From Phytopythium helicoides (lineage: Eukaryota > Oomycota > Peronosporomycetes > Pythiales > Pythiaceae): DNA of 64,000 nt. Positions 32,861 to 34,574 of the stretch are shown one piece after another; positions within the stretch are counted from its first letter, which is position 1, and each line of letters opens with the position of its first letter. The stretch is taken from positions 372,001 through 436,000 of the forward strand of contig JANFNE010000029.1 of assembly GCA_024867545.1 (NCBI GenBank). The letters are read 5' to 3'. The notes beneath the pieces were generated by a model that did no database searches, had not been told where the DNA came from, and saw only the letters and a program-made list of their open reading frames with translations. Position numbers and translations under genes: made by a program.

Positions 32861-34574
32861 TTACGAGACTACGTGGATGTCGCTCTCCGAGTACTGGCAC
32901 AGCGGGTCCTTGATACCCGCACCAAGCTCCTCAGGCTCACCGTCCTCGCTGCCCTGCGACCAAGCACAAACATCGTAGCCTGTCGTCGTCGGCCTTGATG
33001 TAGATGTTGCTGAGCACGGCCTCGTCACCGTAGTTGTCGTTGACCGTGACAATGCTCACGCCCGGGTTCACAGGCGTACACATTCGACACGTACACGAAG
33101 CGCTGGCGGTCGCCGCACGTGCCGCACGATCGGTACAGCTTGCCGAACGTGTCAGCATAGAAGCCGTCGATCTTGACCGTGCCGTAGCCGTTGTGCTGCA
33201 CGACCTTGTCATCAGCGTTCCTGGCACCACCTCCCGTCACCGTGGAGACACTGCTGGCCGAGCCACCCTTGATACTGAGAGCATCCTCGCACACATCGTC
33301 CCACCACACGTTCTCGATTGTGCAGTCATGGTCGTCACAGTGGACACCCTCCATCTGGTTGGCACCGATGATGACGTTCTTGAGCGTGGCGCCAGCCTCA
33401 AGCGAGAACACAGCCGTCGAGGTTCCACTCTCCTCTTGACCCTCGCACGTAATGTCCGAACGCTCGTAGGTCTTCATGCCACCGTCAAAGGTCTCGCCAG
33501 CCGCAACAACGTACACCTCGCTGTACTGGACGGTGCCCTGGCTCGTGGGCCACGTGCCATCAGGCACCTGACGAAGAGCTCGAAGTGGAGGTGGTGGAAG
33601 TAGAAGTCGAGGTTGAGGACGTCGAGTTAGACGAGGTCGACGAAGCCGAAGTAGCACTCGACGACGAAGCCGTGGTAGGCTCCGGAGTGGACTCCGAGTC
33701 CGAGTCCGAGTCCGAGCTCTTTGACTTGTCCGAGTCGTCATCATCGTCATCGTCGTCACCCTTGCTTGAAGCGGCCGACGGAGCGTCCGTGGTCTCAGAG
33801 TCATCGTCACCCTTGCTGGAAGAGGCAGACGGAGCGTCCGTGGTTTCAGAGGTGTCAGCCTCCGACTCGGTCTCACTGGAAGTCGAGGTGGTCGACGTCG
33901 AGGTGGAGCTACCGCCCTCAAGCGGAATGCAGTCCTCTGTTCAATCAAAGCACAGTAATGAGTAAATCTGACCAAGAAAACTTCATGCGACCATACCCAA
34001 CGACTTACTGTAAGTCTGCCACACGGTCTCGCCGTCCACACCCTGGAAAGCAAGCCAGTAAAATCGCATCTCACTGCAGCCACCCGAGCTGCATTGCGAG
34101 TAGTCCACAGGGAACACAGTCGTGCCGTCCGACTCGTACGTGCCGTAGCAGTTGTCATCGCTGAAAACCTTGGTGCTGTCGAGCCAGATCTCGCAGGGTC
34201 CAACGTGCTGGATGGCACGCGAGAAGGTAGCCGTGCTAGGTGCTGGGAATGGGCTGCGCTTCACCGTTGGGGTCGGAGTAGCCGCACTCGGCTCCATAGA
34301 GCGAGGTATCGCCGTCAAGAAGAGTCTTGAGGTCCGTGACGCCATTCTTGGATGCTAGCTCCTTCCACACCGTGACACTAGGCCTCCTCATTGCCATCCC
34401 AGTCGTCGCTCTCGAATCCCGAAGGAGGGTCGATCTGGACGACCCACGCCGACGTCGTGGTGCCGCTGAACTGCGTCTCAGGGATGAGCATGTAGCCGTG
34501 GGCGTTGACATGGGCCACGAAGGTGCTAACCGCAAGCGCGGCCTGCGATGATGTTGGTGCGAGCAGGAGACCAT
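32861..34574 (-). CDS. AA17 monooxygenase-PL3 pectate lyase fusion, frame disrupted as assembled (AA17 no. 5)
   Basis: Exon 1 (34009-34574) encodes a signal peptide, HGYMLIPETQFSGTTTS and the copper-brace His (AIQHVGPCEIW). Exon 2 (32861-33936) encodes DCIPLEGG, an 80-100 residue Ser/Thr/Asp linker, and then a PL3 pectate lyase domain starting PDGTWPTSQGTVQYSEVYVV, with VVAAGETFDGG, NVIIGANQMEGVHCDD, NVWWDDVCEDALSIKGG, VVQHNGYG and GDRQRFVYVSNVYA. Breaks near 34565, 34541, 34380, 34241, 33567, 33047 and 32977 each look like one extra base. Exon 1 is 566 bases (562 plus four), and the exon 2 length fits three insertions. If real, one protein would combine oxidative and lytic pectin cleavage. 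The basic tail of the other AA17 proteins is replaced by the lyase. Confidence 0.8.

What the first reader, a model, noticed from the sequence alone, without database searches (positions are those of the whole stretch)
32861..34574. AA17 copper oxygenase fused to a PL3 pectate lyase
The AA17 catalytic domain (N-terminal His, AIQHVGPCEIW) continues through a Ser/Thr/Asp linker into a PL3-type lyase (PDGTWPTSQ..., NVWWDDVCEDA, VVQHNGYG, RQRFVYVSNVYA), on the same strand and in one exon. AA17 is the oomycete LPMO family reported to cleave pectin, and PL3 cuts de-esterified pectin by elimination. One polypeptide holding both would be a two-mode pectin-degrading enzyme; I do not know this architecture as described. 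The frame is interrupted as assembled, so the fusion needs proof.
Basis: partly seen in the sequence, partly recalled or inferred. Interest (0 to 1): 0.88.

Follow-up and report, generated by a model that had tools for sequence, protein, structure and literature searches.

The report
Copper oxygenase fused to pectate lyase
A water mould related to Phytophthora carries a gene that joins a copper-oxygenase domain of a pectin-cutting family to a pectate-lyase domain; the copy in this window is broken as assembled, but an unbroken copy elsewhere in the same genome is predicted to make one secreted protein that likely cuts pectin in two chemically different ways.

Summary
The AA17-linker-PL3 order is real. 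In the window it lies on the minus strand, ATG 34574 to TAA 32861, with a predicted 72-nt intron between the AA17 core and the linker, so it is not one exon. As assembled, the frame changes six times, once at the linker/lyase junction, so this copy cannot make the fusion. The proof lies on contig C4 of the same genome: a second AA17-linker-PL3 gene, unbroken over three predicted exons (560 residues). The AA17 end, the linker and the whole lyase share one 375-codon open frame with no Met and no second signal peptide before the lyase. The two linkers align with each other better than with any of 194 other tails or linkers. The AA17 halves differ, so one fusion followed by exchange of the AA17 half is likely. 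C4 keeps copper-site and lyase catalytic-type residues, and its lyase evolved under purifying selection. None of 269 listed database relatives carries both domains, and no paper I found describes an LPMO joined to a polysaccharide lyase. Expression and activity are untested. New variant of a known kind: LPMOs with a second catalytic domain are known, but with glycoside hydrolases.

The parts
34009..34574 (-). First exon of the fusion copy: start, signal peptide and AA17 core (HGYMLIP..., AIQHVGPCEIW..., RFYWLAFQ). Frame-broken as assembled.
   Evidence: pieces are 87-91% identical in DNA to the unfused AA17 at 22.4 kb and to other cluster copies
33937..34008 (-). Predicted 72-nt GT..AG intron, same position and phase as intron 2 of the C4 copy
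   Evidence: splice product matches database AA17 proteins
33568..33936 (-). AA17 C-terminal segment (DCIPLEGG) and Ser/Thr/Asp-rich linker; similar along its length to the C4 linker
   Evidence: (score 227; 0 of 300 shuffles reach it; best of 194 other tails or linkers 186)
32861..33567 (-). PL3 pectate lyase domain (PF03211) without its own start codon or signal peptide; frame-broken as assembled; ends ...SESDIHVVS*

Best explanation
This genome holds an AA17-linker-PL3 fusion gene in two places, an unbroken copy on contig C4 (two predicted introns) and a related copy in this window that is frame-broken as assembled, and the unbroken copy is predicted to make one secreted protein of about 560 residues that likely cuts pectin by oxidation and by elimination at two separate active sites. 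How it would work (inferred): the AA17 domain is N-terminal, so signal-peptide cleavage frees the histidine that its copper site needs. A long acidic, Ser/Thr-rich linker then carries the lyase, joined close to the point where free lyases begin after their own signal peptide. The oxygenase would nick the packed pectin backbone, and the tethered lyase would cut the de-esterified stretches nearby by beta-elimination. How it arose (inferred): a PL3 gene like that at C19:399 kb, without its signal peptide, was joined to the last exon of an AA17 gene, which in unfused genes encodes only a low-complexity tail. The window copy is a mosaic whose AA17 half now matches its cluster neighbours, likely by recombination or gene conversion reaching into the first part of the linker, and it has since likely become a pseudogene.
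For: C4 locus: exon 1 (360 nt) ends HV|GT..AG|GPCEIW; exon 2 is 202 nt; exon 3 is one frame holding the AA17 end (NCIPLNGG), linker and lyase. Summed exon length is divisible by 3 and gives 560 residues. In the 375-codon frame of exon 3 the first Met is residue 173, inside the lyase, which begins at 143. Lyase: PF03211 at 257.6 bits. AA17 exons 1 and 2 match solved AA17 chains, best E 2.0e-29 and 1.1e-26; the first mature His, the His before GPCEIW and the RFYW motif align. The Lys of DALSIK, Lys of DDKVIQ and Arg of LYRSCG align with 1ee6 (catalytic roles recalled). Two loci have the same order, and each linker finds only itself in a genome DNA search that skips simple repeats. Linker pair: score 227, 0 of 300 shuffles; best of 194 other tails or linkers 186 against the window and 171 against C4. 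C4 lyase: 30 synonymous and 5 nonsynonymous codon changes at the 108 codons where two unfused relatives agree; pairwise dN/dS 0.083 against C19:399 kb. C4 and C19:399 kb lyases group with support 97/80.
Against: No transcript, protein or activity data. Splice sites and the signal peptide were called by eye. No fusion among 269 listed database relatives, so the gene may be young or confined to this lineage. The lyase N-terminal parts of the two copies are not shown to be each other's closest relatives, and their AA17 pieces are only 51-63% identical, so two separate fusions are not excluded; linker and lyase C-terminal part speak for one origin. Low-complexity linkers score above shuffles quite often: several unrelated PL3 linkers and AA17 tails reach z 3.5-5, and three long PL3 tails that my cut left with more sequence reach 4.6-8.0. 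The window lyase has more amino-acid changes than C4 in one count (23 synonymous, 15 nonsynonymous codons of 89; 35 and 8 of 89 in another).
Confidence: 0.73

Rival explanations
1. The window copy is intact in the organism and its six frame changes are sequencing or assembly errors.
For: In-frame pieces of the window copy still show low dN/dS (lyase N-terminal part 0.06-0.15 against its four nearest genome relatives, 0.19 and 0.25 against two more distant ones; the two lyase C-terminal pieces 0.02 and 0.10 against C4; AA17 piece 0.10 against the 22.4-kb copy), which long decay would not leave.
Against: Six changes in 1.7 kb, while AAA, GH3, Ysc84 and other window genes are open over 235-875 codons, the C4 copy is clean, and a 517-codon transposon-type frame lies directly beside it. 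Three other AA17 copies of the cluster (29, 36 and 42 kb) also match in more than one frame, as expected of a cluster with pseudogenes; a poorly assembled stretch would look the same.
Confidence: 0.25
2. Two separate fusions: an AA17 gene captured a PL3 domain twice.
For: AA17 halves of the two copies have different closest relatives and the lyase N-terminal parts do not group together; C4 keeps an intron at HV|GPC that the window copy lacks.
Against: The linkers align over most of their length, including ETTDAPS-type repeats and the TPEPTTA...SNSTSS block (PEPTT is in 0 of 93 other tails or linkers), above the best of 194 others, and the last lyase piece is 97% identical in protein to C4 over 38 residues.
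Confidence: 0.2
3. Misassembly or chance adjacency: an AA17 gene and a PL3 gene lie side by side and are transcribed apart.
For: AA17 and PL3 genes are numerous (83 and 42 matches) and are neighbours without fusion at C57.
Against: On C4 both are in one open frame with no start or signal peptide for the lyase; the same order occurs at two loci with similar linkers.
Confidence: 0.06
4. The C4 gene is transcribed, but the appended lyase is an inactive tail that only binds pectin.
For: No activity data; the same genome has a PL3-like protein on C57 in which, by eye, the Lys, Lys and Arg positions are replaced, so PL3 folds without catalysis may be kept.
Against: The C4 lyase keeps those residues and shows purifying selection.
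Confidence: 0.15

Closest known systems
AA17 lytic polysaccharide monooxygenases of oomycetes (PDB 6z5y, 8s71, 8s6s)
   Same: AA17 sequence over the whole domain, N-terminal His after the signal peptide, second His before GPCEIW; a disordered Ser/Pro/Thr-rich tail follows AA17 in described proteins too (PMC8615602, passages)
   Different: Here the tail leads into a second catalytic domain; the passages I saw mention only disordered tails, or cellulose-binding domains in Saprolegniales (PMC8615602, PMC8393829)
PL3 pectate lyases (PF03211; PDB 1ee6, 3t9g, 3b90)
   Same: Full domain, catalytic-type Lys, Lys and Arg positions kept on C4
   Different: No signal peptide of its own; attached behind an LPMO. 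Multi-domain relatives seen among the database hits are PL3-PL3 tandems (e.g. P0001)
Modular LPMOs with a glycoside hydrolase (mostly AA15, a few AA10; GH9 or GH18 in AA15)
   Same: LPMO and second catalytic domain on one chain (PMC8615602, passages)
   Different: The partner is a polysaccharide lyase that acts by elimination on pectin, not a hydrolase

Membership tests
AA17 LPMO | Sequence match to characterised AA17 over the whole domain | tested here: met
   C4 exons 1 and 2 against 8s71, 8s6s and 6z5y; one window piece
AA17 LPMO | Histidine brace: His as first mature residue and a second conserved His | tested here: met
   C4: H25 aligns to chain residue 1, H119 to chain His 96/97; the cleavage site was judged by eye
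AA17 LPMO | Copper-dependent oxidative cleavage of pectin | not testable with these tools
   needs protein
PL3 pectate lyase (PF03211) | Domain match above the curated cut-off | tested here: met
   C4 257.6 bits, window piece 242.3 bits, cut-off 25
PL3 pectate lyase (PF03211) | Catalytic-type Lys, Lys and Arg positions (roles recalled) | tested here: met
   aligned with 1ee6 for C4; the same motifs are in the window piece
PL3 pectate lyase (PF03211) | Calcium-dependent beta-elimination on polygalacturonate | not testable with these tools
   needs protein
Modular LPMO with a second catalytic domain | Both domains in one continuous coding frame with a linker (C4) | tested here: met
   AA17 end, linker and lyase in one 375-codon frame; total predicted exon length divisible by 3
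Modular LPMO with a second catalytic domain | The window copy itself can be translated as one chain | tested here: not met
   six frame changes as assembled
Modular LPMO with a second catalytic domain | Expressed as one transcript | not testable with these tools
   no RNA data held

The most novel reading that the evidence does not exclude
This is the first natural enzyme that couples an LPMO to a polysaccharide lyase: a secreted two-site pectin cutter in which oxidation and elimination act on the same homogalacturonan. It arose because the last exon of AA17 genes, normally a disordered tail, works as a swappable cassette that captured a PL3 domain and was then moved between AA17 genes.
Probability: 0.55. 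Interest if true: 0.75.

Novelty: new variant of a known kind. Interest (0 to 1): 0.6.

Why it matters
Oxidative and eliminative pectin breakdown are known as separate, co-induced activities of plant-infecting oomycetes (PMC12537922, passages seen). A single polypeptide with both would show that they can act at the same place and time, and it is a natural construct for testing whether LPMO oxidation helps a pectate lyase. It also suggests how oomycete wall-degrading genes build new enzymes: by exchanging tail exons within tandem clusters. Whether the disordered AA17 tail is a module in its own right becomes testable.

Tried and rejected
Chance adjacency or two separate genes: rejected for C4 by the open frame and the absence of a lyase start. 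Other fusions in this genome: I compared the coordinates of the 42 PL3 and 83 AA17 matches by eye (the tool calls such counts lower bounds). Only C4 and the window have a PL3 close behind an AA17 on the same strand; at C57 they are separate genes. Other species: three protein searches listed 120 of 1217, 120 of 1304 and 120 of 188 matches (in one search only the 7980 candidates sharing most words were scored). Of the 269 distinct proteins listed, 0 held both domains. Deeper rows were not seen, and split gene models would be missed.

Analyses with limits: the gap count is not usable, because intact copies also score frame-breaking gaps under its loose gap penalty. In one search four AA17 comparisons (29k, 20.6k, 40k, 38k) and the two cluster controls were read in a wrong frame and are ignored. 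In one search three of the ten comparison tails were in a wrong frame and two were too short. I repeated the control more widely (194 tails or linkers, the two fusion copies themselves left out; 93, PL3 tandems cut before the second domain where my motif found it). That weakened the linker case a little, and I raised the odds of two separate fusions from 0.15 to 0.2 and lowered the main one from 0.75 to 0.73. The tree used 11 loci of the genome and 24 segments from 23 database proteins that I picked out of 149, and only the first 165 lyase residues. I inspected 16 PL3 loci, not all. I ran no structure prediction. A 2009 survey of oomycete domain fusions (PMC2705460, searched for terms) has no 'pectate lyase' or 'pectin' in its main text. 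In a shipworm-symbiont secretome (PMC12055684, passages) the LPMO is AA10 with a binding module, and a two-domain pectate lyase is PL1-PL1. PMC10916295 (passages) shows no such fusion.

Full report
What is in the window. The window is C23:372001-436000 of a 49-Mb, 100-contig genome. Its closest named protein relatives are from Phytophthora and Nothophytophthora; the species is not identified. On the minus strand, from ATG 34574 to TAA 32861, there is a signal peptide and AA17 core, a predicted 72-nt GT..AG intron (34008-33937), the AA17 C-terminal segment DCIPLEGG, a Ser/Thr/Asp-rich linker, and a PL3 domain (PF03211, 242 bits). An AA17 piece matches the three AA17 sequences with solved structures.

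The window copy is broken as assembled. The open-frame pieces and the separate matches show six frame changes: three in signal peptide and AA17, one at the linker/lyase junction and two in the lyase. The remaining pieces still show low dN/dS (lyase N-terminal part 0.06-0.15 against its four nearest genome relatives, 0.19-0.25 against two more distant ones; 0.10 for one AA17 piece against the copy at 22.4 kb). In a three-way count the window lyase has 23 synonymous and 15 nonsynonymous changed codons of 89 against C4 and C19:399 kb, and 35 and 8 of 89 against two unfused relatives. If the breaks are real they are therefore probably recent; assembly error cannot be excluded without reads. Neighbouring genes are open over hundreds of codons, but three other AA17 copies of the cluster also match in more than one frame.

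The proof of fusion lies on another contig. A search of the whole genome gave 42 PL3 matches and 83 AA17 matches. On C4 a PL3 match lies about 500 bases behind an AA17 match on the same strand. The fetched stretch (L009) holds a complete gene. Exon 1 is 360 nt (MVSTRFTILS...AGHGYMLIPES...MVHV), followed by a GT..AG intron. Exon 2 is 202 nt (GPCEIW...RFYWLAF...WQVY), followed by a second intron at the same position and phase as in the window. Exon 3 lies in one frame of 375 codons, counted from an in-frame point just before the acceptor site. It runs through NCIPLNGG and the linker (139 residues together) and the whole lyase to ...SESDIHIV-stop. The exon lengths sum to 560 codons plus stop. There is no Met in that frame before residue 173, while the lyase starts at 143. 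In contrast, the 14 unfused PL3 loci that I inspected have their own Met and a hydrophobic leader within 60 residues before the domain (16 loci inspected, the other two being C4 and the window). The lyase on C4 could therefore hardly be secreted except as part of the AA17 protein.

Are the active sites kept? In C4 exon 1 the His after the leader aligns with residue 1 of 8s71, 8s6s and 6z5y, and the His before GPCEIW aligns with their second His. Exon 2 aligns over 67 residues. In the lyase the Lys of DALSIK, Lys of DDKVIQ and Arg of LYRSCG align with 1ee6; that these positions are catalytic in PL3 is recalled, not tested. The C4 lyase differs from two unfused relatives by 30 synonymous and 5 nonsynonymous codons at 108 codons where those two agree, so it has been under purifying selection.

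How did two copies come about? The two linkers align with a score of 227 against a shuffled mean of 135 (z 8.5-8.9, 0 of 300 shuffles). Against 194 other AA17 and PL3 tails or linkers from this genome and the database hits, the best raw scores are 186 (window) and 171 (C4). Shuffle z-scores are less clear-cut: properly cut tails and linkers reach about 5, and three long PL3 tails that still held more sequence reach 4.6-8.0. The PEPTT block shared by the two fusion linkers is in 0 of the 93 sequences. A genome DNA search with each linker found only itself (the tool skips simple repeats). This favours one fusion event. The flanks tell another story. The AA17 half of the window matches cluster copies, above all the unfused AA17 at 22.4 kb (87-91% nt in three pieces), as do the first 93 nt after the intron (83%). 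C4 AA17 is distant from all of them and keeps an intron at HV|GPC that 9 of the 10 window copies, the fusion copy included, lack. The lyase N-terminal part of C4 groups with the unfused PL3 at C19:399 kb (97/80), while that of the window is unplaced; in DNA the latter is closest to a PL3 pair at C19:367-369 kb (84%) and then C4 (79%). The lyase C-terminal part of the window is closest to C4 (86% nt; 97% protein over 38 residues). A mosaic made by recombination between AA17 genes in the tail region explains this best. That the tail exon is a swappable cassette is my inference.

What is known. AA17 was introduced in 2021 as a pectin-cleaving LPMO family of oomycetes. I could not read that paper (not held) and rely on passages in PMC8615602, PMC8393829, PMC8993506, PMC12537922 and PMC13224840. 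They report a disordered Ser/Pro/Thr-rich tail after AA17, fusion to cellulose-binding domains in Saprolegniales, co-induction of AA17 and PL3 in infection, and LPMOs joined to glycoside hydrolases (mostly AA15, a few AA10). A census of P. parasitica wall-degrading enzymes (PMC4176579, passages) found 50 of 431 proteins with more than one module; it predates AA17. Paper searches gave, in the listings and in the passages I opened, nothing that joins an LPMO to a polysaccharide lyase (further passages). Only open-licence PMC papers were searched, so 'not described' is limited to these.

Database relatives. None of the 269 listed proteins holds both domains (from, whose length windows of 226-719, 206-656 and 183-581 residues, by the tool's stated ratio, all admit a protein of 560). 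The listed rows are the best 120 of 1217, 1304 and 188.

Verdict. The fusion architecture is real and occurs twice in this genome, once unbroken. The window copy is a mosaic relative that is frame-broken as assembled. A two-site pectin enzyme is the most likely product of the C4 gene; its expression and both activities remain to be shown.

Noticed in passing
window 31010-32563 (+): Transposon-type open frame with a sub-threshold Cas12f1-like/TnpB zinc-domain match (PF07282, E 1.1e-4; Fanzor-like by recall), just behind the 3' end of the broken fusion copy; 96 matches listed in the genome, many 95-98% identical and with open frames of about 662 codons, so probably a recently active family.
   Followed up: partly
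L010 2104-4062 (+) (C57:62103-64061): PL3-like protein in a 652-codon frame with long Thr/Pro/Glu repeats; by eye, the positions of the two Lys and the Arg kept in other PL3 domains are replaced (38.6% identity to the C4 lyase), so perhaps a PL3 pseudoenzyme.
   Followed up: no
AA17 and PL3 tails, e.g. L010 AA17 frames, window 40.8k and 38k tails, P0067, P0077, P0151: Several unfused AA17 and unfused PL3 proteins end in the same kind of tail: Ser/Thr-rich and closing with C-x-x-R-K-R-like residues. A shared tail of two unrelated enzymes suggests tail exchange or a common wall-targeting role.
   Followed up: no
window 3030-7090 against 13491-17538; 55526-58153 against 59876-62503: Large inverted duplications (AAA ATPase pairs, GH3 pairs). 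PL3 arrays on C19, C24, C35 and C67 also occur as near-identical copies in both orientations.
   Followed up: no
window 20600-43000: Tandem AA17 cluster of ten copies; besides the fusion copy, those at about 29, 36 and 42 kb also match in more than one frame.
   Followed up: partly
P0001 and others: PL3-PL3 tandem proteins with a Ser/Thr linker in Phytophthora and Nothophytophthora, showing that linker joins before VPDGTWP recur in this family.
   Followed up: no
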